NCBI GenBank assembly: GCA_903927465.1
Contig: CAIYMY010000119.1
Span: 1 to 35,377 of the forward strand
Reading direction: 5' to 3'
Length of the DNA stretch: 35,377 nucleotides
DNA from: an uncultured Rhodospirillales bacterium
GTDB lineage: Bacteria; Pseudomonadota; Alphaproteobacteria; Acetobacterales; Acetobacteraceae
The notes below the pieces were generated by a model that did not search any database, was not told where the DNA came from, and saw only the letters and a list, made by a program, of their open reading frames with translations. The position numbers and the translations under genes were made by a program. Positions within the stretch are counted from its first letter, which is position 1. Every line of letters begins with the position of its first letter. Shown here piece after piece: positions 11,895 through 33,191 of the stretch.

Positions 11895-12614
11895 ATGTCC
11901 ACCCCGCGCCTTCATCTTGAAACCCACCTCGCCGCCGGCCTTGAGATCGAGGCTGAGCCCGGGCAGGCGCATCATTTGGGCGCCGTGCTACGCCGTGGCC
12001 CCGGCGATGCCGTGGCAGTCTTCAATGCGCGGGATGGCGAATGGGCTGGGCGGATCACGGCTCTCCGCAAGGATCGTTGCCGCATCGCGCTGGAAACCCA
12101 AAGCCGCGCGCCCCAGCCGGAACCTGATCTCCGCCTGATGGTCGCCGCGCTGAAGCGCGATGCCATGGAATGGTTGGTGGAAAAAGCGACCGAACTTGGT
12201 GTTGCCGCCATTCATCCCGTCCTCACGCGCCGGTCTGTCGCGGATCGGGTAAACCAGGCGCGGCTTGCCGCCATTGCTCGCGGCGCGGCGGAACAATGTG
12301 AAAGATTAAGCCTGCCCGTGATCCACGCAGCCATGCCCCTGCATGCTGCGCTGGCCGTCTGGGATGGCGTGCCGCTTTTTATCGCAGCTGAGCGCGCCGA
12401 TGCGCCCGCCCTTCCGCAAGCGCTATCTGGGCAGCGCCTGCCGCTTGGCCTATTGATCGGCCCGGAAGGTGGCTTTGACCGCGCCGAACTTGACGCCGCC
12501 CAAAGCTACCCCTTTGTTAAGCCCATCGGCCTTGGCCCCCGCATCCTGCGGGCGGAAACGGCGGCGGTTGCGGGGCTTTCGGTCCTCGCCGCCCTGGCGG
12601 GTGACTGGTCCTGA
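11895..12614 (+). CDS. rsmE: 16S rRNA (uracil-1498-N3)-methyltransferase
   Basis: A 239-residue SPOUT methyltransferase that methylates U1498 of 16S rRNA using SAM. The N-terminal PUA-like domain has AHHLGAVLRRGPGDAVAVFN. The C-terminal knot has KRDAMEWLVEKATELGVAAI, RRSVADR, then ARGAAEQCERLSLPVI, LLIGPEGGFDRAELD and LGPRILRAETAAVAGL. All are classic RsmE motifs and the length is normal. It is divergent from ubiA, with starts only about 28 bp apart, so the two share a very compact control region. gshA follows 42 bp downstream in the same direction and may be co-transcribed. Confidence 0.95.
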   Translation: MSTPRLHLETHLAAGLEIEAEPGQAHHLGAVLRRGPGDAVAVFNARDGEWAGRITALRKDRCRIALETQSRAPQPEPDLRLMVAALKRDAMEWLVEKATELGVAAIHPVLTRRSVADRVNQARLAAIARGAAEQCERLSLPVIHAAMPLHAALAVWDGVPLFIAAERADAPALPQALSGQRLPLGLLIGPEGGFDRAELDAAQSYPFVKPIGLGPRILRAETAAVAGLSVLAALAGDWS

Positions 12615-12656
12615 TTATGTTTCGCGTCGTCCCGGCGGCGCCCCTGGAAGGTTTTG

Positions 12657-14000
12657 ATGTCCAATCCCGGCGAGTCCGATCCCACGCCCATCACCTCCAC
12701 CCGCCAAATGGCGGAATGGTTCGCCGCCGGCTGTAAGCCCAAATCCGCCTGGCGCATCGGTACCGAGCATGAAAAATTCGGCTTCCGCCTGACGGATTAT
12801 GCCCCGCCGCCCTACGAACCGCAGGGCATTCGCGCCATGCTGGAAGGGCTGATGGCGAAGGGCTGGGAGCCGATACTCGATCGCGGCAACCCGATTGGCC
12901 TGAAGCGCGGCGCCGCTTCCGTCAGCCTGGAACCAGGCGGGCAGTTTGAGCTTTCTGGCGCGCCCTTGGCGAATATGCATGAAGTGGCTGCCGAGCTTTT
13001 CGAACATTTGGACGATGTGCGCGAAGTCGCCGCGCCCTTGGGCCTGGGCTTTGCGCCTATTGGCTTTCATCCGTTGGCGAAGCGCGAAGATATGCCCTGG
13101 ATGCCGAAGGGTCGCTACGAGATCATGCGCCAATATATGCCGCGCGTCGGCGCCATGGGCCTTGATATGATGCTGCGCACCTGCACGGTGCAGGTGAACC
13201 TCGATTTCGGCGATGAAGCGGATATGGTGGAAAAGCTTCGCGTCTGCCTTGCGCTGCAACCGCTGGCGACCGCGCTATTTGGCAATTCGCCGATTTCTGA
13301 GGGCAAGAAGAACGGCTATCGCAGCCTCCGCGCCCGGGTCTGGACAGATACGGACCCGGACCGCACCGGCATTCCCGCCGTGGTGTTTGAAGATGGCTTC
13401 GGCTTTGAACGCTTTGCCGAATGGGTGCTGGATGTGCCCATGTATTTCATCATGCGCGATGGCCAATGGCTGGATGCGGCGGGGCAGAGCTTCCGTGCCT
13501 TCTTGAATGGCAAGGCAGAAAAACTCGCCGGGCAATCTGCCACCATGGGCGATTGGGCGGATCATGTGACGACGGTATTCACCGATGTGCGGTTGAAACG
13601 CTTTCTGGAAATGCGCGGCGCGGATGCGGGGGCACCTTCCATGCTGAATGCGCTGCCGGCCTTTTGGGTGGGCTTGATCTATGATGACGCCGCGCAAAAG
13701 GCAGCGCGCGCGCTGACGCGCGGTTGGAGTGTCGCGGAAATCCGCGCGCTGCGTGAAGCCGTGCCACGAGAGGGCCTGACCGCCACCATCCAGGGCCGGT
13801 CGCTCCGCGATGTGGGCCGCGACGTCCTGGCGATTGCGCGTGATGGGATGAATGCGCGCGGGCTGGAAGAAGCGCTGTTTCTTGACCCGCTTGATGCAAT
13901 TTTAGCCACAGGTGAAACCCAGGCGGATCGTTGGCTTCAACGATTTGATAAGATTTGGCATGGCGATGCGCGCATGATGCTGCGGGAAGCGGCGATTTAG
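12657..14000 (+). CDS. gshA: Glutamate-cysteine ligase (plant/alphaproteobacterial type)
   Basis: A 447-residue GCS2-family enzyme that makes gamma-glutamylcysteine, the first step of glutathione synthesis. Recognisable segments are RIGTEHEKFGFR, RGAASVSLEPGGQFELSGAP, RYEIMRQYMPRVGAMGLDMM, CTVQVNLDFGDEADM, LFGNSPISEGKKNGYRSLRA and MGDWADHVTTVFTDVRLKR. The ATG at 12657 has GGAAGG 5 nt upstream; a TTG just before it is not needed. The final 244 bp (13757-14000) are repeated at 16452-16695, so the gene's 3' end marks the left edge of an inserted islet. The main copy is full length and should be functional. A G-run/C-run hairpin follows the stop but lacks a U-tract. Confidence 0.95.
   Translation: MSNPGESDPTPITSTRQMAEWFAAGCKPKSAWRIGTEHEKFGFRLTDYAPPPYEPQGIRAMLEGLMAKGWEPILDRGNPIGLKRGAASVSLEPGGQFELSGAPLANMHEVAAELFEHLDDVREVAAPLGLGFAPIGFHPLAKREDMPWMPKGRYEIMRQYMPRVGAMGLDMMLRTCTVQVNLDFGDEADMVEKLRVCLALQPLATALFGNSPISEGKKNGYRSLRARVWTDTDPDRTGIPAVVFEDGFGFERFAEWVLDVPMYFIMRDGQWLDAAGQSFRAFLNGKAEKLAGQSATMGDWADHVTTVFTDVRLKRFLEMRGADAGAPSMLNALPAFWVGLIYDDAAQKAARALTRGWSVAEIRALREAVPREGLTATIQGRSLRDVGRDVLAIARDGMNARGLEEALFLDPLDAILATGETQADRWLQRFDKIWHGDARMMLREAAI
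13757..14000 (+). repeat. Direct repeat, left copy: 3' end of gshA
   Basis: 244 bp that recur at 16452-16695 with 12 substitutions and no gaps (hand count). Similarity starts abruptly at AGCCGTGCCACG and ends at the stop codon. This copy is part of the intact gshA. Confidence 0.9.
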
Positions 14001-14052
14001 GGGGGGTACCACAAAACCCCCACAATTTATTCAGAGCCGCGCAGGTGAACCA

Positions 14053-14223
14053 TGACAAGCCAAGCCAAAGCTTGAGGGCTAAGCAAAATACGAAAAATCG
14101 GTATTGTTAGACGAATGGGCCACCGCGCTCTAAGCCCACCAGGGGTAGATAACGCCCAAAAGACAAAGCGTTCCGGTCATGACACTACGCTGAGGCGAAA
14201 GCCTCAAAGCTAGAAATAGTGTC
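14053..14223. other. Stem-loop-rich non-coding stretch, candidate structured RNA
   Basis: The 14001-14227 gap has no convincing gene. It contains consecutive hairpins: one around 14060-14080 (AAGC/GCTT with flanking AGCC/GGCT), one around 14085-14112 (AATACGA pairing with TCGGTATT, one bulge), GGGC/GCCC around 14118-14140, and the best at 14181-14223. In the last, GACACTA and TAGTGTC enclose TGAGGC, a GAAA tetraloop and GCCTCA. A GNRA-capped stem inside a second stem is typical of functional RNA. I match it to no known family and the strand is unknown. It lies in the inserted islet next to the 28-codon ORF. Confidence 0.35.
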
Positions 14224-14227
14224 TAAA

Positions 14228-14314
14228 TCAGGGCCTTACGGCACCCTGCGCCAGAGCCACGAGAGGCGCCAGAACCAACAGAGCGCTGAAAAACGCAAAC
14301 ACAACGGACTTCAT
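14228..14314 (-). CDS. Small hydrophobic peptide, 28 codons
   Basis: A short ORF reading MKSVVFAFFSALLVLAPLVA, then LAQG and four more residues. It has a charged start, a 19-residue hydrophobic core and a possible signal peptidase site ALA-Q, so it looks like a bare signal peptide or a single-helix membrane peptide. GAGGAG lies 8 nt before the ATG, and a TTGACT promoter element lies about 55 bp upstream, so expression is plausible. It could be a small inner-membrane peptide (as in type I toxins), a decayed 5' end of a secreted-protein gene, or a leader. It is downstream of the 622-residue membrane protein gene on the same strand, inside the islet. Confidence 0.45.
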   Translation of the reverse strand: MKSVVFAFFSALLVLAPLVALAQGAVRP

Positions 14315-14345
14315 GGAACAACTCCTCAAGGGAACTTACCCTATT

Positions 14346-14374
14346 TACCTGCCACGCCTGCAGCAAAAAGTCAA
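14346..14374 (-). promoter_or_regulatory. Possible promoter of the 28-codon ORF
   Basis: TTGACT (14369-14374, minus strand) is a five-of-six match to the -35 consensus, in AT-rich DNA between the membrane protein gene and the small ORF. The -10 partner 17 bp away (CAGGTA) is weak; TAAATA a few bases further is better but widely spaced. Only the -35 is convincing. Confidence 0.3.
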
Positions 14375-14486
14375 GAACTTTCAACCTGGCAAATTCAACA
14401 ACCTCGCCTGTAAAAAGCTATTTGAAAAGTTTTTCTCTTGTGAAATCAACAACTTATAATCCAATCGCCCCCGCCCGGACGCGGCT

Positions 14487-16355
14487 CTAGCGTGGTGTCT
14501 CCGCAGAGAAGCGGCGCGCAGTTTCGAGAATGGGCCGGAAGGGATAGTTTTGAAACAGGTTTGTCAGGTCCCTGCGATCCCCCCCTTCCTGTGCTTCGCG
14601 CCATTTAGCTTGTGCTGCCTCTAACTCGTGCAAGCCCATGCGTAGGGTATTCTCGGCCTCCTTCTGCAATTCCCGAGCCTGCTCACGCGACACAACAGGC
14701 TCTGCTGCCCAGGCGCGAGCAACGCGCGCATAGGTAATTTGGAAAACAGCACCCCAAGCCTGACTGTCATAGGGCTTAAGGTTGGCTGGGAAGCAAGCAA
14801 GGTCGGCGTCCCTTAGCGCGGTAGCCAGGCGCATATGATGGGCTTTCAGACGGTTTGCGGGATCAGGGTTGTCAACCACAGCGAGCAGCATACGCGCTAA
14901 TAAAGATGCGCGTGTAAGGAAGAGGCTGGCATCCAAACCTAATGGGTCAGGACTATCATGAATTTTTGGGCAGGCACTTCCATTGCTTCGAACTGTCGTA
15001 CGCGCATAATGTTCCAGGCGCGGCAAGCCGGGAAGGGCCTCGAACTCCCCAACAGCTACCTCAAGCGCAGCACGCGCCGAAGCTGGTTCGGGACGGCCAA
15101 AGGTGCTGGGCAGAATTATTACAAGTTCGATCAGCGTGCGTACACGCAACCAAGCCAAGGTCACATCTGGCTTGTCAGGCGCCAGTGTATTCCGTTTATC
15201 AGCCAGCCAGTTGGTCAGCAACCTTGCCGACATGCTTGGTTCCTTATAGGCGGCACCCAACCAGGCGGCTGCCAGCGTGATATAGGGCGCAGATCTTGTC
15301 TCATTCCAGACACCATCGAGTCGGTTCTGTCGCCCCTTATCTTCGGACTGTTTATCGGCACTAGACGCTGGATCAGGCTGTGCTGGTGATCCTTGGGAAC
15401 TTTGGCACTTGTTATTCTCTCCACTTTGAAATCCATCCATATAGAGTCCCATATCATTCTGCAGCCTCACTTCGTTCATGTGCAAAGTATGTAATAACTT
15501 ACTCGCATGGTCCGAGGATCCGCCGCTTTGTCGTTCCCTTATCGCGCGCTCTAAGACCACAAACGCGAGCGGAACATCAACACCGGCAATCGCGACCAAG
15601 CGAGTATCATTGCTTTTCCTTATATAATTATCTAGACAAAGAACCGTGCTTCTAAACATACCCAAAAATCGTCTATATTCTTGGAAAACATTATCTTGGA
15701 TTGTCAGATTTTGATTTGGTTCCGCCAACCGCCGGATGATTTCATAGTCTCGTTGGATCATGTTTCTCTTTTCGTCTGGGTCGGTAAGGTCGAGCAGCGC
15801 TGCGATGTTGGGAAAGGCTTGGTCCTGTCTCTCGCCATTGGTCGTTAGCGATTGACTCGGCAAAATCTCATCTCGCTTGCTCGCCCGTTCCAATGGCTGT
15901 AGCGATACCTTCATCCCACCCGCTTCCAAACCGACAATGCGCTCCAGCACCCCATCTCGTGACAGAAGTGCAACCGCGAGGAACAAGGCGGCGGGCAGAA
16001 CGACAATTGCTGAATTTTTTAACGCCCCCTCCGATTCAGCACTCATCTCTTGGGTACGTCGAAAACCCTCATAAAGTATGATACCTGCCAATGCACCGCC
16101 GATAAGTTCGGCCGACTGATAATTTTCAAGTGAGCTGAGCGTCCTTATCACGGCTGCAATTGCGTCCTTGGAATGGGCCTCACGCGCATTGATCCAGGCA
16201 GCCAGTAAGGCCCAGAAAAGCGATACCCCTCCAACCACAATGGCGGCCCAAAAACAGGGCAATAAACTAACCATTCCGCCATCGTGCTTGGTACGACGGC
16301 CAAACCATCGAGCTAGAATAAACACTAAACTGGCCGCAAGGAAAAATAGCGCCAC
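14487..16355 (-). CDS. Unrecognised 622-residue membrane protein in the islet
   Basis: I do not recognise this family. The N-terminal 135 residues hold about four hydrophobic helices (near 2-18, 28-52, 83-98 and 115-132); basic clusters RWFGRRTK and GFRRTQ after helices 1 and 3 suggest those loops are cytoplasmic, which would place the long C-terminal part in the periplasm (inference). The C-terminal 480 residues are polar and mostly helical in style, with a Ser/Gln/Pro-rich linker near 315-345 and an amphipathic Glu/Ala-rich end (EAENTLRMGLHELEAAQAKW). No Walker, nuclease or protease motif was seen. It starts with GTG at 16355, about 6 nt after GAGGAGAGG. Base composition is far below its neighbours: 39 of 120 bases are G or C at 15601-15720. 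This and the flanking gshA repeats suggest lateral acquisition. Confidence 0.75.
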   Translation of the reverse strand: MALFFLAASLVFILARWFGRRTKHDGGMVSLLPCFWAAIVVGGVSLFWALLAAWINAREAHSKDAIAAVIRTLSSLENYQSAELIGGALAGIILYEGFRRTQEMSAESEGALKNSAIVVLPAALFLAVALLSRDGVLERIVGLEAGGMKVSLQPLERASKRDEILPSQSLTTNGERQDQAFPNIAALLDLTDPDEKRNMIQRDYEIIRRLAEPNQNLTIQDNVFQEYRRFLGMFRSTVLCLDNYIRKSNDTRLVAIAGVDVPLAFVVLERAIRERQSGGSSDHASKLLHTLHMNEVRLQNDMGLYMDGFQSGENNKCQSSQGSPAQPDPASSADKQSEDKGRQNRLDGVWNETRSAPYITLAAAWLGAAYKEPSMSARLLTNWLADKRNTLAPDKPDVTLAWLRVRTLIELVIILPSTFGRPEPASARAALEVAVGEFEALPGLPRLEHYARTTVRSNGSACPKIHDSPDPLGLDASLFLTRASLLARMLLAVVDNPDPANRLKAHHMRLATALRDADLACFPANLKPYDSQAWGAVFQITYARVARAWAAEPVVSREQARELQKEAENTLRMGLHELEAAQAKWREAQEGGDRRDLTNLFQNYPFRPILETARRFSAETPR

Positions 16356-16451
16356 GTGAACCTCTCCTCAAGAACCTGAAACGCAAGCAAAACAAGGCTT
16401 CTTGTTGTTAACTCGTTTGTCAAGCAATAATTAATCATAATCCCTTCCGGC

Positions 16452-16695
16452 AGCCGTGCCACGAGAGGGCCAGACAGCAACCATCCAGGGCGGGTCGCTC
16501 CGCGATGTGGGCCGCGATGTGCTGGCGATTGCGCGTGATGGGATGAATGCGCGCGGGCTGGAAGAAGCGCTGTTTCTTGACCCGCTTGATGTAATTTTAG
16601 CCACAGGAGAAACCCAGGCAGATCGTTGGCTTCAACGATTTGATAAGATTTGGCATGGCGATGCGCGCATGATGCTGCGGGAGGCGGCAATCTAG
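16452..16695 (+). pseudogene. gshA 3'-end fragment, right direct repeat of the islet
   Basis: Codes in frame for the last 80 or so residues of glutamate-cysteine ligase and its stop, with no start or upstream gene. Compared with the intact gshA end at 13757-14000 there are 12 substitutions; nine are silent third-position changes and three change residues (Leu to Gln, Arg to Gly, Ala to Val). That bias means the copies diverged while still under protein-level selection, so one came from another strain's functional gshA rather than from decay of a local duplication (inference). Confidence 0.85.
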
Positions 16696-16790
16696 CTAAT
16701 TTTTGCGCAGAGCGTGCGCGTGCCACAAAACTGAAACCCTTCTTTCATCACCTTCAGCGATGATGCCTTACTTTCGCTGGAGGATTTTCT

Positions 16791-19091
16791 ATGGCTGTTA
16801 CCGCGCGTCGTTTATCGGGGTTGCGCCCCCGCTTGCTCATGCTGGGTCTTTTGCCGGCGATTTTCGCTGGCTTGCTGGCCGCCACCGGCGCCTTCTGGGC
16901 GGTCAAGAATGACCATCAGGCGCAGATGCAGCAGGCCCTGACCCGCGCCGTTGGACTGGCAGAACGTGATTTGCATGACGCCGCGCAGCGCATGGCCGGC
17001 TACACGGCAAGCTTCGCGCAACGCCCAGACCTGATTGCTGCACTCGCGGCGGGTGATGCCGCCGCACTGCGCAACATACTAGTTCCTGGATTTGCAGCCA
17101 TGCGCGCGGTGGACCCGACGGTTTCAGTGCTTGAAGTCACGAATAAATCAGGCCGCGTGATCATGCGCGGGCATGATCCGAATCGTGTGGGTGATGACAA
17201 ATCACGCCTGCCGGATGTGGCTTCCGCGCTGATGGGTACTGGAAAGTTGGGCAGTGAAGTTTCGCCTTCATCCGGCCAGTTCGCGACCGGCGCGGCGCTG
17301 CCAGTGAAGGATCAATCCGGCCAGATTATTGGCACACTGAAGGTTGCAACACGCCTGACGCCCGCTGTGGTCGCGGAACTTGGCCAAGTGGTGGGCGGTG
17401 AGGCGGCGCTGTTTGGCGCGGGCCGCCTGGTGACCTCCACCGTCGAAGGGCTTACCATTGATGCACTGCCCGAAGCGGTGCTTACAGCGCAGCGCGATGG
17501 CCAAGCGATCAGTGGCCTTGATCTTGTGCTGCCTGGGCGCGGCGCGCATGTGCTGGCGGTGCAGCCGCTCCGGGATTTGAGCGGCAATGCCGCTGGCGCC
17601 ATGATGATCGCCCTGCCGCGCGCGACTTTCGATGCGGCGATGGATAAGGTGCTGTCCATCATCGGTTTTGCCGCGCTTGCGGTACTTGGCATCACCATTC
17701 CGGTGGCGCTGATTGCGGCGCGGCGCATCGCCAATCCGCTGAGCGACTTGGCCGGTGCCATGGGCCGTTTGGCCAAAGGCGATACCGCGCTGGAAATTCC
17801 AGGCCGTGGACGCAGTGATGAGGTCGGCAGCATGGCCGAAGCGCTGGAGAAATTCCGCGAGCAAGCGGAAGCCAATGCCGCCTTTGAAGCCAACGCCGCC
17901 ATTGAACGCGCGGCGCGGGATCGGCGCCAGGCCATGGTGGAAAGCCTGACGCAGGAATTTGGTGGCTCGGTGGCGTCCATCATGGATCGGCTGCGCGATT
18001 CTGCCGGCGGCATGCGTGACGCCTCGATCTCCATGGCCTCGGCCACGGAACAAACTCGCAATCGCGTGGCCGATACCGCGGATGGGGCGCAGCTGAATTC
18101 AAGCAATCTTGCAGCAGTTGCCGCCGCTACCGAGGAAATGACCGCGTCAGTCACCGAAATCTCGCGCCAGGTGGCGGAAGCGGCACGCGCGGCGCAGGAC
18201 GCAGTGGAACGCGCCCATGCCACGGGTGCCACCGTGCAAGGCTTGGCAGAATCGGCCAATCAGATTGGCGATGTGGTGCGCCTGATCACGGATATCGCCC
18301 GGCAGACCAACCTACTGGCGCTGAACGCCACCATCGAAGCGGCGCGTGCTGGTGATGCCGGCAAGGGCTTCGCGGTTGTGGCATCCGAAGTAAAGACCCT
18401 TGCTGCGCAAACTGCGCGTGCGACGGAACAAATCAGCGCGCAGATCAGCGCCATTCAGGCTGCCAGCGGCGACGCGGTGGGCGCGGTTCAGGAAGTGGCC
18501 AACGCCATTCAGCGCGTGAGTGGTGTGGCCAGTGCAATCGCCGCCGCCGTTGAAGAACAGGATGCGGTGACGCGCGACATCTCAGCCAGCGTACAATCTG
18601 TCGCCAAGCAAAATGACGAAGCCGCACACGCCATGCGGGAAGTTTCCGATGTTGCCGAAGGGGCGCGCACATCCAGCGGCACGGTGAAAGTGGCAGCCGA
18701 GACGGTTGCCGATGTCACGGGCCGGCTTGGTGAACAGGTGGATGGCTTCCTGACAGGCATGCGCACCGATTGGGAAAGGGTGGATGGCGCCGGCACGCCC
18801 ATGCTGATCGCCACCAAGGGCGGCAAGGCGGAGGAAGCGGGGTTGATTGAAATCGCGCGTGACGGAGCGAGCCTGAAGAGTGATGGCGCCTTCACGCCCG
18901 GCATGATGGTGGAACTGGCCATGCCTGGTGCCGGCGCGGCCTTGCCAACGCGCGTGGTGCTGGCGGAAGGTGGGCGGCTTGGGCTTGCCTTCGCACAAAA
19001 CGCCGAAAACATCGCGGCGGTGGATCGGTTGATCGCGGCAGTGCAGGCCGCGATCAAGGCCGCGGGGCAGGGGGTGAAGCGCGCGGCCTGA
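16791..19091 (+). CDS. Methyl-accepting chemotaxis protein with C-terminal PilZ-like domain
   Basis: A 766-residue chemoreceptor that relays a ligand signal to CheA/CheW. It has one N-terminal membrane helix (about 15-37), a periplasmic sensor domain (about 40-285) of the single-Cache type, a second helix (287-310), a HAMP domain (about 311-363), the signalling coiled coil with its conserved hairpin [20 protein letters not shown] near residues 500-520, and from about 665 a small beta-rich domain ([15 protein letters not shown], then RLGLAFAQN) resembling PilZ. PilZ domains bind cyclic di-GMP through RxxxR and D/NxSxxG; the second motif is loosely present and the first is not evident, so binding is uncertain. 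The ATG has GGAGG 8 nt upstream. No che genes are nearby. A stem-loop follows the stop. Confidence 0.93.
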
Positions 19092-19210: not shown

Positions 19211-20269
19211 TCAGGCGCTTCCGTGAAGCCCCACCAGCACCAGCAATTTCCGCATGACACTCGGCAGGGCATGTGCTGCTTCCGCCGGTGCCAGCCATTC
19301 GCCCTCAGGCCGTTTGGCCCGCGCCGACAACCGCGCATGATAAAGCTGCATGGTCAGCGCGAAATGGGTGAAGACATGCCGCGCCTCACCATCCACTGGC
19401 TGCCAGGCAAGCGCGATGGGTGCTTGGGCCAAAGCCTCGGCCGCGGTCCAGGTAGTCTCCCGCCAGGAAGTGCCGGGGATTTCCAGCATGCCGCCCAAAA
19501 GCCCGCGCGGAGGGCGCCGCCTTAGCCAAACCTGGCCCTGCGCATCCGTCAGCAGAAAATGTACGCCATGGCGCGTGGGGCGCTCGGGCTTCGGCGCCTT
19601 GCGCGGCAGGGCTTCCGCCAAGCCGAGCTTTTGCGCCTTGCAGGCCTTCTGCCAGGGGCAAAGCGCACAGGCGGGTTTGCGCGGCGCGCAAATACCCGCC
19701 CCCAGATCAAACAAAGCCTGGGTGAAATCGCCAGGCCGGGTGCGGGCGGCCTTATCGGCCAGAAAACCCTGCGCCAGCGCATCAAGCCGGGGTTTGGCAC
19801 CGGGCAGCGCTTCCTCCACCGCGAAGACCCGCGCGGTGACGCGTTCCACATTGCCATCCAGCGGCACCACGGGCGCATTGAAGGCAATGGCTGCGATGGC
19901 GGCGGCGGTATAGGGGCCAATGCCGGGCAGGGCGGCCAAGCCCTCACGCGTTTCTGGAAAGCCGCCCAAGGCCAGGATCTGCCGCGCCGCCGCATGCAGA
20001 TTGCGCGCCCGCGCATAATAGCCAAGCCCGGCCCATTCCGCCGCCACATCCTCCCACGGCGCTGCGGCCAGGCTGGCCAAATCGGGGAAGCGCGCCAGAA
20101 AACGCGCGAATCGCGGCCCTACTGTTGCCACCGTGGTCTGTTGCAACATGATCTCTGAAAGCCACACGTGATAGGGTTCCGCCCGCTCCCCAGGCGGGGC
20201 GCGCCATGGCAGGATGCGGCGGTGCCTGTCATACCAGTGCAGCAGATCGGTGGCGGAAGGGGGTTTCAC
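19211..20269 (-). CDS. mutY: A/G-specific adenine DNA glycosylase
   Basis: A 352-residue base-excision enzyme that removes A mispaired with 8-oxoguanine. The HhH-GPD domain shows WLSEIMLQQTTVATV (Glu39 catalytic), the helix-hairpin-helix ALPGIGPYTAAAIAAIAF and the catalytic Asp138 in VVPLDGNVERV. The [4Fe-4S] cluster ligands are Cys194, 201, 204 and 210 (spacing C-x6-C-x2-C-x5-C). A NUDIX-like C-terminal domain follows, used to read 8-oxoG. The likely start is GTG 20269, which gives normal family length; it has no Shine-Dalgarno. The ATG of the divergent DUF721 gene is only 3 bp away, so the two genes' control regions must lie within each other's coding sequence. Confidence 0.95.
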   Translation of the reverse strand: MKPPSATDLLHWYDRHRRILPWRAPPGERAEPYHVWLSEIMLQQTTVATVGPRFARFLARFPDLASLAAAPWEDVAAEWAGLGYYARARNLHAAARQILALGGFPETREGLAALPGIGPYTAAAIAAIAFNAPVVPLDGNVERVTARVFAVEEALPGAKPRLDALAQGFLADKAARTRPGDFTQALFDLGAGICAPRKPACALCPWQKACKAQKLGLAEALPRKAPKPERPTRHGVHFLLTDAQGQVWLRRRPPRGLLGGMLEIPGTSWRETTWTAAEALAQAPIALAWQPVDGEARHVFTHFALTMQLYHARLSARAKRPEGEWLAPAEAAHALPSVMRKLLVLVGLHGSA

Positions 20270-20272
20270 GGC

Positions 20273-20743
20273 ATGTCCCGGAATGAGGAAGAAAGGCGGT
20301 TCTTTGGGGGGCCTAGACCCCTCGGCGCCCTGATTCCAGCCCTGACGCGCCCGGCCTTCAAACGCAAGAGCCCCGCCGCCGCGCAGATCATGGCGGATTG
20401 GACCGCCCTGGTCGGCCCGGCGCTGGCCGCCGTGACCCAACCGCTGCGGCTGACCGCCGGCAGCCTGACCATCGCCTGTTCCGGTCCGATTGCCATGGAA
20501 CTCAGTCATTTGGCGCCAGAACTCATGGCCCGGATCAATGGCGGGCTGGGGCGCGTGGCGGTGGAGCAGCTGCGCTTCGTGCAGACCAATCAGCCGGCCC
20601 GGGCCGCGGCCAAACCCGCCCTGCCGCCCCGCCCCGTGGCGCTGCCCGCCCGAGTCGCCACCGCTTTGGACAGTTTACCCACAGGGGATTTGCGCGAGGC
20701 GCTGGAAAGATTGGCGCGCGGCGTCTATCGAAAACAAGGCTGA
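20273..20743 (+). CDS. DUF721 (DciA-like) protein
   Basis: A 156-residue protein with one DUF721 domain: PLGALIPALTRPAFKRKSPA near the start, then MADWTALVGPALAAVTQPLR and the strand AGSLTIACSGPIAMELSHLA, followed by a low-complexity Pro/Ala linker and a short helical tail. DUF721 proteins include DciA, which helps load the replicative helicase DnaB in many bacteria that lack DnaC; the role is assumed for this gene by family. The ATG at 20273 has AAGGGGG about 9 nt upstream, inside the mutY codons. It is followed closely by the DsbA-like gene and smc in the same direction, an order common in alphaproteobacteria. Confidence 0.85.
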   Translation: MSRNEEERRFFGGPRPLGALIPALTRPAFKRKSPAAAQIMADWTALVGPALAAVTQPLRLTAGSLTIACSGPIAMELSHLAPELMARINGGLGRVAVEQLRFVQTNQPARAAAKPALPPRPVALPARVATALDSLPTGDLREALERLARGVYRKQG

Positions 20744-27339: not shown

Positions 27340-30300
27340 ACCCGCTTCGCTTCCCCCGCCAAGCGCGCCAGCACGCGCAGCAAATCCCGCGCCCGCTTTA
27401 CCCGTTCCGCCAGGTCCATGTCGCGGATCAGCGACAGCTTGGCATCCGGGCGGAGCTTCACGGCCCCCTTCTGCCCCTGGATCCAGGTAATCAGCCCGCC
27501 GGGATTGGCGAAATTCTGCCCCCGGAAGCTCAGCACCAGCCCCTTCGGCCCAGCATCCAGCTTTTCCACCCCCGAATCCCGACAGAGCCGTTTGATGGCG
27601 ACCACTTGCAGCAGGTTCTCAACCTCAGCAGGCAAGGGACCGAAGCGATCCGCCAATTCTGCCGCCATGGCGTCATTCTCGCCATCCGTGGCCAGGCCCC
27701 CGATGCGCCGATAAAGCCCAAGCCGCACGGGTAGATCGGTCACGTAGTTTTCCGGGATTAGCACCGGAAGGCCAAGGTTGATCTGCGGCGTCCAATCCCG
27801 CTCACTCTCTCGCCCCTCAGCGCCGGCTTTGATATCGGCCACGGCTTCTTCCAACATTTGCTGGTAAAGTTCGATCCCCACTTCGCGGATCTGGCCGGAT
27901 TGTTCCTCACCCAAAAGGTTACCGGCGCCGCGAATATCCAAATCATGCGACGCCAACGTGAAGCCGGCACCCAGATTATCCAGCGTCTGCATCACTTCCA
28001 GCCGCTTTTCCGCCGCTGCCGAAAGCCGATGCGCTTCCGGCCAAGTCAGGTAAGCATAGCTGCGCAGCTTCCCGCGCCCAACGCGCCCGCGCAGCTGATA
28101 AAGCTGTGCGAGGCCAAACATATCCGCGCGATGGATGATCAGCGTATTCACCGCCGGCATATCCAAGCCGCTTTCAACGATATTGGTGGACAGCAGAATA
28201 TCATGCTTGCCATCGCCGAATTCGGTCATGACGCGTTCAAGTTCGGTGGGCGTCAAGCGGCCATGCGCCTGGATCATGCGCGCTTCCGGCACAATCTCAG
28301 TCAGGCGTTCGGCCAGCTTCGCCATATCTTCAATGCGCGGCACCACACAGAAAATCTGCCCTCCACGGAAGCGTTCGCGCTGAATGGCTTCGCGCAGCAC
28401 CACAGCATCCCAGGGCATGATGAAGGTGCGCACGGCCAGCCGATCCACCGGCGGCGTTGCGATCACGCTCATCTCACGCACGCCCGTCAGCGCCAATTGC
28501 AGCGTGCGCGGAATGGGCGTGGCCGTCAGCGTCAGCACATGCACATCGGATTTCAGCGCCTTCAGCGCTTCCTTATGCCGCACACCAAAATGCTGTTCCT
28601 CATCCACCACCAGCAGGCCCAGATCGGCAAATTCAATCCCCTTCGCCAAAAGCGCATGGGTGCCGATGACGATATTGATATCCCCGCGCTTCATGCCTTC
28701 GCGCACTTCCGCCGCATCCTTGGCGGTCACCAGGCGCGAGAGTTGCGCGATGCGCAACGGAAAGCCTTCAAAGCGCTTCTGGAAAACACGATGATGCTGG
28801 CGCGCGAGCAGCGTGGTCGGCACCACCACGGCAACCTGTACGCCGGACATCGCCACCACAAAGGCAGCGCGCAGCGCGATTTCCGTCTTGCCGAAGCCAA
28901 CATCGCCGCAAATCAGGCGGTCCATGGGCCGGCCGGCGGAAAGGTCTTCCAACACATCGGCAATGGCGCGGGATTGATCTTCCGTCTCCGCAAAGGGGAA
29001 GCGGGCACAAAACTCATCCCACATACCCTCAGGCGGCGTCGCCAAAGTGCCATCCTTCATGCGCCGCATGGCCGCGGTGCGAATCAGTTCCGCCGCCATG
29101 TCGCGGATGCGTGACTTGGCCTTGGCCTTACGATTCTGCCAGGAAACACCGCCAAGCTTGTCCAGCGCAACGCCAGTGCCTTCCGAACCAAAGCGGGAGA
29201 GGATTTCGATATTCTCGACAGGAACGAAAAGCCTGTCCCCACCATCATAAATCAGCTTCAGGCAATCATGCGGCGCGCCTGACACTTCGATGGTGACCAG
29301 GCCTTCATAGCGGCCAATGCCGTGATCCTGATGCACCACCAGATCGCCCTCGGCGATCTCCGTCGCATCCGCGATGAATTGATCAGCCCTGCGACGCCGG
29401 CGCGGCGGGCGAGCAATGCGTTCACCCAGCAAATCCTGCTCAGCCGTGACCGCGATGCCTTCCGCGATGAAGCCGCGCTCAATCCCCATCACCACCAGGG
29501 CCACAACATCTGCCGGCAGCGCGCGCGCGGCTTTCCAATCCTCAGCCGTCTCCGCACGCAAGCCATTTTCGCGCAGCAGATTGCCAAGCCTTTCACGAGA
29601 CCCGCGTGACCAGGCCGCCAGCACGGGCCGGCGCTTGGCCTTGGCTTCCCCCTGCACCATGGCGGCATAGGCCGCGAAGACATTCTCGCCGGCGCTGCGT
29701 GCTTCCGCGAAAAGCGGGCCGGGGCGCCCGCCTGCGGCAATGCCATCCGGCACGGCGAAAGGCGAAAAGCGCAGCACGCGGCAATCGGCCAGCATCGCCA
29801 CCCAGCCGGCTTCATCCAGATAAAGCGTTGCAGGCGGCGCGGGGCGATACGGCACATCGCCTTCCCCAATGCGGGAAGGCACGCGGCGCGCTTCGTAATG
29901 ATCCATGATCATCTCAAGCCGCGCCTTCAGCACTTCCTCTGCCTGGTGATCGAAGCTGATTTCGGCGCCGGGCAGATAGTCGAACAAGGGCACCATGTTG
30001 TCATGGAATAGCCCCGCCCAATGTTCCATGCCAGGATAGCGTCGCCCGGCACTGATCGCGCCATAAAGCGGATCATCCGCCGCCGCCGCGCCGAATAAGT
30101 CGCGGTAGCCGCTGCGGAAGCGCGTGCGCGATGCCTCATCCAAAAACACCTCGCCCACTGGGCGAAGCGAAAGCGCGGGTACTACCTTGCCACTGCGTTG
30201 GCTGGCGGTGTCGAAGCGGCGCATATCCTCGATCTCATCACCAAAAAAATCGAGTCGTATGGGCTCTGCCTCGCCTGCCGGGAAAAGATCAATAATGCCG

Positions 30301-31073: not shown

Positions 31074-33191
31074 ATGGGAATCCTGTCAGCCCGCCCCGAA
31101 CCGCCCGCCGCCGCCGAGGACCCCCTCGCGCGGCTACTGGCGCCTATTGAAAGCCTGCCCGGGCTGCGCAAGCCGGAATTGCTGACGCGCGCGGCGGGTG
31201 GGGGGCGGGTGCTGGATTTGCTTCTGCATTTGCCAGAACGCGTGCAGCATCGCCCGGTTTTGCGCGGGCTGGCGAGCGCGATTGAGGGGCAGGAAGTAAC
31301 GCTGGAACTGCGCATTACCGGCGCCCCAGCAGGCGGGGGACGCGGGCCTTGGACGGTACCGGCGATTTGCGGCGCCGATCCGGTGGCGTTGATCTCCTTC
31401 TCCCGCGCCACTTGGGCGGGCACGGCGCTGGCGCGCGCCCTCCCGCAGGGGGCGGAGCGGCGCGTGGCGGGGCGGCTCAAGGCCTATCAGCGCGCCTGGC
31501 AATTGGAATTGGATGCGGACCCGCTGGTGGAACCGCCGCTCAGCATCCCGCTTTGGCAGCCAATGTGGCCGCTGACGGCCGGGCTTTCCTGGCGGAATAT
31601 GGCCGATGCGCTGGATGGGGCGCTCAAAGCCCTGCCTGATATGCCGGAATGGGTGGATGGCCCGTTGCTGAAGCGCGAAGCCTGGCCTGGCTTTACCGAG
31701 GCTTTGCGCGCCCTGCACGCGCCCCAGGCACAAAGCGCCGAGGCGCCTCGCCGGCGGCTTGGCTATGATGAATTGCTGGCAGGGCAGATCGCCCTTGGCC
31801 TGGTGCGGCGCCGGTCGCGCGAAAGACCAGGCAGGGCACTGATGGGCGATGAGCGTCTGCGCGGCCCTGCCTTGGCCGCCTTTGGCCATGCGCCAACGCC
31901 TTCCCAGCTTCAGGCCATGGCCGAGATAGATGCTGATCTGGCGGCGCCCCGGCGCATGCTGCGCCTGCTGCAAGGCGATGTCGGCGCCGGCAAAACCCTG
32001 GTCGCGCTGATGGCCATGCTGCGCGCGGTGGAAGCCGGCGCCCAGGCCGCCTTGATGGCACCGACCGAATTGCTCGCCCGGCAGCATGTGCGGAGTTTTG
32101 AGCGGCTTTGCGGCGCCGCAGGGGTGCCGGTGGCGCTGCTCGCAGGCAGTGTGAAGGGCAAGGAAAGGCGCCGGGTGCTGCAAGGGCTGGCGGATGGAAC
32201 ACTCCCCATCGTGATTGGCACTCATGCGCTGTTTCAGGAAGGGGTCGCCTTCAAGGATCTGGGCCTGGCCGTGGTGGATGAACAGCACCGCTTTGGCGTG
32301 GCGCAGCGCCTATTGCTGGCGGAAAAGGGCCAGGCTGCGGATATGCTGGTCATGACCGCAACGCCCATTCCGCGCACACTGTTGCTGACGCAATGGGGCG
32401 AAATGGCCGTCAGCCGCATGGAAGGCAAACCCGCCGGGCGCCAGCCCATCGCAACGCGCATCTTGAGCCAGGAACGCCTGCCGGAGATCGTCGCCCGCCT
32501 GCATGAAGCGGTGGCACGCGGCGCCCGCGCCTATTGGGTGGTGCGCGCCATCACCGGCAGCGAAAAGGATGACAGTGTCGCCGCCGAGGACCGCTTTGCT
32601 GAGCTTTCCGCCCATTTCCCGGGCCGCGTTGGCCTGGCCCATGGCATGCAAGATGTCGCGGTGCGCGAAGCTGCTTTGGGCGATTTCGCCGCCGGGCGGA
32701 CCAATATCCTGGTCGCCACCACCGTCATTGAAGTGGGCGTGGATGTGCCGGAAGCGACCATCATGCTGATTGAACAGGCAGAACGCTTCGGCCTGGCCGC
32801 GCTGCATCAGCTGCGCGGGCGCGTCGGGCGGGGGCGGGAGGCATCATCATGCCTTTTAGTGCATTCCCCGGGCCTGAGTGACGGCGAAAGGCGGCGCTTG
32901 CTGGTGCTACGCGATACCGAAGACGGTTTCGTGATCGCTGAGGAGGATTTGAAATCCCGCGGCGGCGGTGATGCTTTGGGTGCGCGCCAGGCCGGGCTGC
33001 CCGGCGCCCGGCTATTTGATGCGCGGGAAGACCCGGATGAGTTTTCGCGGCTGGTGCAGATTGCCCATCGCGATGCGGAAGCGCTGCTGACGCGCGATGC
33101 GGCGCTTGCCTCCCCGCGCGGGCAGGCGGCGCGGCTTTTGCTCAGGCTTTTTGGCCATGATCTTTCCATGGCGCCGCTGGATGCCGGCTGA
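31074..33191 (+). CDS. recG: ATP-dependent DNA helicase RecG
   Basis: A 705-residue branch-migration helicase that remodels stalled forks and Holliday junctions. The N-terminal wedge/OB domain includes LLLHLPERVQHRPV. The helicase core has Walker A LLQGDVGAGKTLVALMAML, MAPTELLARQH, VVDEQHRFGVAQR (the DEQH box typical of RecG), VMTATPIPRTLLLTQWG and motif VI ALHQLRGRVGRGRE. The C-terminal domain begins about RDTEDGFVIAEEDLKSRGGG. Length is normal. Its start is 37 bp from sdhE on the other strand. The related translocase mfd lies next door, divergently; the two share the motor type. Confidence 0.95.
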   Translation: MGILSARPEPPAAAEDPLARLLAPIESLPGLRKPELLTRAAGGGRVLDLLLHLPERVQHRPVLRGLASAIEGQEVTLELRITGAPAGGGRGPWTVPAICGADPVALISFSRATWAGTALARALPQGAERRVAGRLKAYQRAWQLELDADPLVEPPLSIPLWQPMWPLTAGLSWRNMADALDGALKALPDMPEWVDGPLLKREAWPGFTEALRALHAPQAQSAEAPRRRLGYDELLAGQIALGLVRRRSRERPGRALMGDERLRGPALAAFGHAPTPSQLQAMAEIDADLAAPRRMLRLLQGDVGAGKTLVALMAMLRAVEAGAQAALMAPTELLARQHVRSFERLCGAAGVPVALLAGSVKGKERRRVLQGLADGTLPIVIGTHALFQEGVAFKDLGLAVVDEQHRFGVAQRLLLAEKGQAADMLVMTATPIPRTLLLTQWGEMAVSRMEGKPAGRQPIATRILSQERLPEIVARLHEAVARGARAYWVVRAITGSEKDDSVAAEDRFAELSAHFPGRVGLAHGMQDVAVREAALGDFAAGRTNILVATTVIEVGVDVPEATIMLIEQAERFGLAALHQLRGRVGRGREASSCLLVHSPGLSDGERRRLLVLRDTEDGFVIAEEDLKSRGGGDALGARQAGLPGARLFDAREDPDEFSRLVQIAHRDAEALLTRDAALASPRGQAARLLLRLFGHDLSMAPLDAG

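What the first reader, a model, noticed from the sequence alone, without database searches (positions are those of the whole stretch)
13757..16695. Islet flanked by a 244-bp direct repeat of the gshA 3' end
The last 244 bp of gshA recur intact, stop codon included, 2695 bp downstream. Everything between (small peptide ORF, stem-loop stretch, 622-residue membrane protein) is AT-richer than its surroundings (39 of 120 bases G or C at 15601-15720). Of 12 differences between the copies nine are silent, so the second copy looks like the tail of another strain's functional gshA, not local decay. An element that lands at the 3' end of a core gene, or homologous recombination that swapped the neighbouring DNA, would leave exactly this mark. 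No integrase is seen.
Basis: partly seen in the sequence, partly recalled or inferred. Interest (0 to 1): 0.85.

Follow-up and report, generated by a model that had tools for sequence, protein, structure and literature searches.

The report
Gene islet between two gshA tails
A short stretch of foreign DNA carrying one unknown membrane-protein gene was added just behind a core metabolic gene in this bacterium, leaving a spare copy of that gene's end as a scar; this looks like ordinary recombination with DNA from another strain, not a new kind of mobile element.

Summary
The last 244 bp of gshA recur at 16452-16695 (95%, 12 differences, 9 silent), and the 2451 bp between are AT-richer (51.9% against 61.8% GC). 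The islet is in none of the 34 other held genomes of the genus. In 14 of them the tail runs straight into the downstream MCP gene: the empty site. So it is a lineage-specific insertion.

Copy 2 looks like the resident tail (it continues into the native spacer and MCP); copy 1, in frame with gshA, may carry an imported 3' end. The 244 bp are too short for a tree to decide. No integrase was found in the islet, and 1 of 299 sampled genomes of the order has two gshA tails, so this is no gshA-specific hotspot. The position behind gshA is content-variable, though, and one relative has a mirror-image scar: a decayed mutY tail and other cargo before intact mutY.

Best explanation: one-sided homologous recombination in gshA with an illegitimate join at the other end, a known process. 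The 622-aa membrane protein has no convincing relative in the collections searched; most likely a strain-specific accessory gene.

The parts
12654..14000 (+). gshA-type glutamate-cysteine ligase, 448 aa, intact; its last 244 bp are copy 1
   Evidence: Pfam GCS2 E 4.8e-83; ORF
13757..14000 (+). repeat copy 1, end of the intact gshA; differs from G022 by 8 silent changes
14001..16451 (.). islet, 2451 bp, 51.9% GC, absent from the other 34 held genomes of the genus
14001..14232 (+). structured non-coding stretch (hairpin 14002-14021 directly after the gshA stop; nested hairpin about 14181-14223); no Rfam family
   Evidence: fold z -2.95 on + strand, -2.18 on - strand; hairpin; Rfam none above cut-off
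14228..14314 (-). 28-codon ORF, signal-peptide-like by eye; coding status unproven
   Evidence: Pfam: one hit far below cut-off
14487..16355 (-). 622-aa ORF, hydrophobic N-terminal segments then a long, probably helical part; no convincing relative
16440..16451 (+). 12 bp that abut copy 2; exact inverted copy at 14534-14545 inside the 622-aa ORF (possible templated insertion at the join)
16452..16695 (+). repeat copy 2, orphan gshA tail, read as the resident relict
16696..16790 (+). native spacer of the kind that follows gshA in 14 congeners
16791..19091 (+). methyl-accepting chemotaxis protein, native right-hand neighbour of gshA in the close clade
19211..20509 (-). mutY, convergent core gene on the far side of the variable region
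   Evidence: 274 bits, just under the NCBIfam cut-off of 286.5

Best explanation
Additive, one-sided homologous recombination. A linear DNA fragment from another strain, holding a gshA 3' end followed by the islet, recombined by homology within gshA. Its other, non-homologous end was joined illegitimately to the resident chromosome about 244 bp before the end of gshA. The result is gshA with a donor tail, then donor cargo, then the resident's own now useless gshA tail, spacer and MCP gene. Shown: the insertion, the empty site, the tail duplication and the synteny of copy 2 with the native flank. Inferred: the linear donor, the direction, and the illegitimate right-hand junction. The cargo is most likely a strain-specific accessory gene for a membrane protein; its function is a guess.
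For: Empty site in 14 of 34 congeners (spacers; in G045 the contig starts at the tail). Islet DNA in 1 of 35. Copy 2 plus spacer plus MCP aligns as one piece to G022 (90.1% over 2642 bp); the upstream region with gshA aligns at 93.8%. At repeat positions 67, 70, 169, 238 and 241 copy 2 equals G022 and copy 1 does not; 241 C is seen only in G022, G008 and copy 2. Copy 1 against G022: 0 amino-acid and 8 silent changes; copy 2: 3 and 7. Mirror case in the genus (G050 C136 and a nearly identical G048 contig): gshA, decayed mutY 3' end (283-nt repeat, 82%, in-frame TGA), MCP remnant, radical-SAM/SPASM gene, intact mutY. With it, tail duplications at this locus hit two different genes, which fits a general recombination process better than one integrase with one target. 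The 12 bp abutting copy 2 (16440-16451) have an exact inverted copy at 14534-14545; 2 of 2422 islet positions end such a 12-mer match, as a templated insertion at an illegitimate join could leave; seen after the fact. No recombinase family in the islet ORFs scanned, no phage or plasmid kin of its DNA or protein. ComEC is present, as in 10 of 14 control genomes.
Against: The 244-bp tree is unresolved: AU tests reject neither copy 1 + copy 2 as sisters (p 0.39), nor copy 2 + G022 (0.13), nor copy 1 + G022 (0.39). Copy 1 is nearer to G022 overall (8 against 10 differences) and agrees with it at 7 of the 12 differing sites. No donor was found. The imported stretch of copy 1 rests on five sites, and no breakpoint is visible in rsmE-gshA. 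Strictly private changes are few (copy 2: 3 replacement, 1 silent; copy 1: 0 and 2). No Ku gene was found, so end joining would have to be of another kind. In the mirror case neither mutY tail has a clear nearest relative, so its direction is open, and it lies in two drafts with 3% and 8% contamination, so it counts once.
Confidence: 0.55

Rival explanations
1. Site-specific integration at the 3' end of gshA. An element whose attachment site restores the gene end inserted by a tyrosine recombinase that has since been lost or acts in trans. The left copy would be host up to the crossover and element after it, the right copy the reverse.
For: Islands that restore the 3' end of their target gene are well known (recalled; the trmE case was seen in the start of an abstract). 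The pattern of differences also allows a crossover between repeat positions 42 and 66: against G022, copy 2 differs at 21, 25, 28, 41 and copy 1 at 67, 70. A stretch inside the islet (14234-14280) resembles the right junction (16442-16481), reached by 1 of 300 shuffles, while the same test with copy 1 is reached by 26 of 300.
Against: No recombinase family in the islet ORFs scanned. 1 of 299 sampled genomes of the order has two gshA tails. No gshA tail confirmed in viral contigs or phages; on plasmids 12 records, all under 60% identity, on replicons of 1 Mb or more. It does not explain the mutY-tail mirror case.
Confidence: 0.2
2. Campbell-type integration: a circular molecule that had captured a gshA tail next to the cargo integrated by a single homologous crossover in the tail.
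For: Gives the same final structure as seen, and needs no integrase.
Against: No plasmid relative of the islet DNA or of its protein, no replication or transfer family in the islet ORFs scanned.
Confidence: 0.12
3. The reverse direction: the islet was the resident neighbour of gshA, and a fragment with gshA tail, spacer and MCP from a G022-like strain was added on the right.
For: Copy 2 plus MCP is G022-like. The logic is the same as in the best explanation, with roles exchanged; copy 1 is the tail nearer to G022 overall.
Against: MCP and the upstream region diverge from G022 in about the same proportion as from G047 (90.1% and 93.8% for G022; 84.0% and 89.6% for G047), as expected for vertical descent of both. 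gshA-MCP is the common arrangement in the close clade (14 congeners), and the islet is in no other held genome of the genus.
Confidence: 0.08

Closest known systems
Homology-facilitated illegitimate recombination (Acinetobacter, Streptococcus pneumoniae, Pseudomonas stutzeri, E. coli conjugation; start of abstract of PMC3240628 seen in the listing, passages of PMC2884548 read)
   Same: Homology at one end, non-homologous join at the other; adds foreign DNA next to a homologous anchor.
   Different: Here inferred from sequence in a genus where I know of no such test; the donor is unknown.
Sequential displacement of T6SS effector modules with shifted-back 3' ends of old effector genes in Vibrio cholerae (PMC5361080, passages read)
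   Same: Incoming module lands in a gene's 3' part, and the old 3' end is pushed behind the new cargo.
   Different: Here the anchor is a housekeeping gene that stays intact, not an effector, and no immunity gene is seen.
Integrase-less gene-transfer hotspots flanked by recombining core genes (PMC5635113, abstract and passages read)
   Same: Variable content next to core genes, without recognised mobile-element genes.
   Different: That model is double homologous replacement; here one tail stays as a scar, so cargo was added, not swapped.
Integrative elements targeting 3' ends of genes (e.g. SGI1 at trmE, islands at dusA; PMC8409611, start of abstract seen in the listing)
   Same: Repeated gene end flanks cargo.
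   Different: No integrase found, no recurrence at gshA in 299 sampled genomes of the order.

Membership tests
Integrase-borne genomic island in a gene 3' end | Repeat of the target gene's end at both borders | tested here: met
Integrase-borne genomic island in a gene 3' end | Recombinase gene inside | tested here: not met
   622-aa ORF in Pfam, NCBIfam, PADLOC, PHROGs, 12 further ORFs in Pfam
Integrase-borne genomic island in a gene 3' end | Same target used by other elements in relatives | tested here: not met
   1 of 299 sampled genomes of the order with two tails (23 of them of this genus); strongly decayed second tails could be missed. G048 also gave two tails, on separate contigs, read as mixed strains; G050 a decayed second one
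Homology-facilitated illegitimate recombination product | Empty site with single gene end in relatives | tested here: met
   14 of 34 congeners
Homology-facilitated illegitimate recombination product | Functional gene end from donor, orphan end from recipient | tested here: inconclusive
   site patterns lean that way, tree unresolved
Homology-facilitated illegitimate recombination product | Non-homologous junction with few matching bases to the donor | not testable with these tools
   no donor sequence found; a possible templated 12-bp insertion at the right end is only suggestive
Integrase-less hotspot between core genes | Different content at the same place in relatives, conserved neighbour on the other side | tested here: met
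   rsmE upstream in 31 of 34 loci (from 33 of 34 congeners; G042 not examined), the other 3 cut by contig ends; downstream 1.2 kb of these loci falls into 10 groups by single linkage
Transposon / insertion sequence | Terminal inverted repeats pairing both ends, and a short target duplication | tested here: not met
   of 36 inverted pairs of 10 nt or more within the islet (25 longest listed) none of those listed joins its two ends; the duplication is 244 bp

The most novel reading that the evidence does not exclude
The islet is a self-contained two-gene module of unknown type (orphan 622-aa membrane protein, 28-aa signal-peptide-like peptide, structured RNA) spread between strains at the gshA-mutY convergent junction by recombination alone, and the orphan gene tails left on either side (gshA here, mutY in a relative) are readable scars that record the order and direction of cargo additions.
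Probability: 0.15. Interest if true: 0.55.

Novelty: new member of a known kind. Interest (0 to 1): 0.3.

Why it matters
Gene-tail scars at both sides of one locus (gshA here, mutY in a relative) show how small cargo can be added beside core genes without a recognisable mobile element, and hint at which flank was resident. It gives a cheap marker to look for such events in other genomes. The orphan protein itself becomes of interest only if it is shown to be expressed.

Tried and rejected
Relatives of the 622-aa protein: none in the 34 other held genomes of the genus, in 384 others sampled from the class, in GTDB contigs by two pattern scans, the second with the C-terminal 270 aa alone, in viral contigs by patterns, plasmids and phages; no family above cut-off in Pfam, NCBIfam, PADLOC or PHROGs; one PDB chain at E 0.92. 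In 397 genomes sampled from the family, 13 others gave partial hits at E <= 0.1, the best 7.1e-4, 34% over 77 residues of the hydrophobic part: taken as chance. Structure prediction without an alignment was poor (mean pLDDT 42.8), so no fold search was made.

RNA: no Rfam family in 12000-18500 (two hits far below their cut-offs). tRNA or tmRNA in the islet: none. An attC-like site was considered by eye and dropped for want of a second box (motif recalled, no call). A third 10-mer CCACGAGAGG inside the islet at 14257 led to the alignment; found after the fact, weak.

Direction from the mirror case: neither mutY tail of G050 has a clear nearest relative (best 87% and 88%, several close behind), so nothing was drawn from it. 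Breakpoint scan in rsmE-gshA: none seen.

Assembly artefact: thought unlikely, since the two tails differ at 12 sites and the right junction has no long repeat to misjoin on; reads were not available.

Single-linkage grouping may have chained unlike neighbours together (7 genomes of the distant part of the genus fall in with the MCP group), so 10 groups is rough.
Full report
What is there. The window is contig C119 (35377 bases) of a 3.78-Mb, 220-contig genome, 98.5% complete. gshA (12654-14000) is followed by the islet 14001-16451, then by a 244-bp second copy of the gshA end (16452-16695), a spacer, an MCP gene (16791-19091) and mutY on the other strand (19211-20509). The repeat is 95% identical, 12 differences, 9 silent. 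The islet is 51.9% GC against 61.8% for the window; its 622-codon ORF has GC3 52.0%, while the 16 other genes of the window tested range from 58.3 to 76.4%.

It is an insertion. In 35 held genomes of the genus (own included), islet DNA occurs only in the window's genome, and its protein likewise. In 14 of the 34 others the sequence runs from the gshA tail through the spacer into MCP without interruption (spacers printed). In two (G008, G014) gshA is followed directly by mutY, without MCP. Of 34 loci from 33 congeners, rsmE lies upstream of gshA in all 31 that are long enough to show it, while the downstream 1.2 kb falls into 10 groups (single linkage, rough).

Which tail is native. Copy 2 with its flank aligns to G022, the nearest genome (95.5% over rsmE-gshA), as one piece. 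Compared with 20 other tails, copy 2 differs from G022 and from copy 1 at repeat positions 21, 25, 28, 41, 141, 157 and 232; those at 21, 41 and 141 change an amino acid, and those at 25, 28 and 157 are shared with some other genomes. Copy 1 differs from G022 and from copy 2 at 67, 70, 169, 238 and 241. Copy 1 against G022 has only silent changes (0 replacement, 8 silent); copy 2 has 3 replacement and 7 silent. This reads as: copy 1 is in use, copy 2 is a released relict of the resident gene end, and the last part of copy 1 came with the islet. The counts are small, and copy 1 is nearer to G022 overall. A tree of the 244 bp (21 rows) leaves the nearest rows unresolved, and none of three clade tests rejects (p 0.39, 0.13, 0.39). 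A scan for a breakpoint in rsmE-gshA against G022 shows none.

A mirror case. In G050 (contig C136) and on a short contig of G048, gshA is followed by a decayed copy of the mutY 3' end, an MCP remnant, a radical-SAM/SPASM gene (read on the G050 contig) and then mutY (intact in G050, cut by the contig end in G048). The two mutY ends form a 283-nt direct repeat, 82% alike, 2205 bp apart. In G050 a further MCP lies on another contig (C293) behind a 71%-identical gshA-tail relict, with a transposase pair and ABC-transporter genes upstream (the names IS3 and phosphonate are by eye). These drafts carry 3% and 8% contamination, so I count them as one supporting case. Which mutY tail is resident could not be told.

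How it most likely arose. One-sided homologous recombination plus an illegitimate join explains an intact tail beside the cargo and an orphan tail beside the old flank, for gshA here and possibly for mutY in the mirror case. It needs no element-encoded enzyme. The process is described for naturally transformable bacteria and for E. coli conjugation (PMC3240628, start of abstract in the listing; PMC2884548 passages) and was invoked for shifted-back 3' ends in Vibrio effector loci (PMC5361080 passages). Integrase-less hotspots at recombining core genes are known (PMC5635113 passages). At the right end, the 12 bp that abut copy 2 are an exact inverted copy of 14534-14545 inside the islet; only 2 of 2422 islet positions end such a match, one of them this one. 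A templated insertion at an illegitimate join would look so, but this was seen after the fact and may be chance. Own-genome checks: ComEC present, Ku not found. An integrase-based origin is less likely: no recombinase family in the 13 islet ORFs scanned, and 298 of 299 sampled genomes of the order give a single gshA tail; viral and phage collections gave none, plasmids only distant gshA-like hits.

What the cargo is. The 622-aa ORF has hydrophobic N-terminal segments and a long, probably helical remainder (low confidence). No convincing relative was found in the collections searched. A 28-codon ORF with a Shine-Dalgarno-like sequence and a signal-peptide-like sequence (both by eye) lies downstream of it, and the stretch 14001-14232 folds better than most shuffles (z -2.95 plus strand, 3 of 200 as good; -2.18 minus strand, 5 of 200). 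None of these has a demonstrated function.

Verdict. It is a new member of a known kind. The interest lies in the paired scars at one locus and in the orphan protein, not in a new mechanism.

Noticed in passing
L065:4609-7113 (G050 C136), L066 (G048 C358): Mirror arrangement: decayed mutY 3' end, MCP remnant and (G050) a radical-SAM/SPASM gene between gshA and mutY.
   Followed up: partly
L064:6207-8869 (G050 C293): MCP gene behind a decayed gshA-tail relict, away from gshA, with transposase ORFs upstream.
   Followed up: partly
G008 C81, G014 C3 (L079, L078): MCP is missing behind gshA; gshA and mutY are direct convergent neighbours.
   Followed up: no
16440-16451 and 14534-14545: Exact 12-bp inverted match between the islet's right end and the 3' part of the 622-aa ORF.
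   Followed up: partly
14234-14280 and 16442-16481: Islet stretch resembling the right-hand junction (reached by 1 of 300 shuffles); may be chance.
   Followed up: partly
14001-14232: Stable predicted fold on both strands, no Rfam family.
   Followed up: partly
28481-28673 / 32208-32400: Long inverted repeats at about 70% complementarity; they lie in two helicase genes on opposite strands (mfd- and recG-like), so probably domain homology.
   Followed up: no
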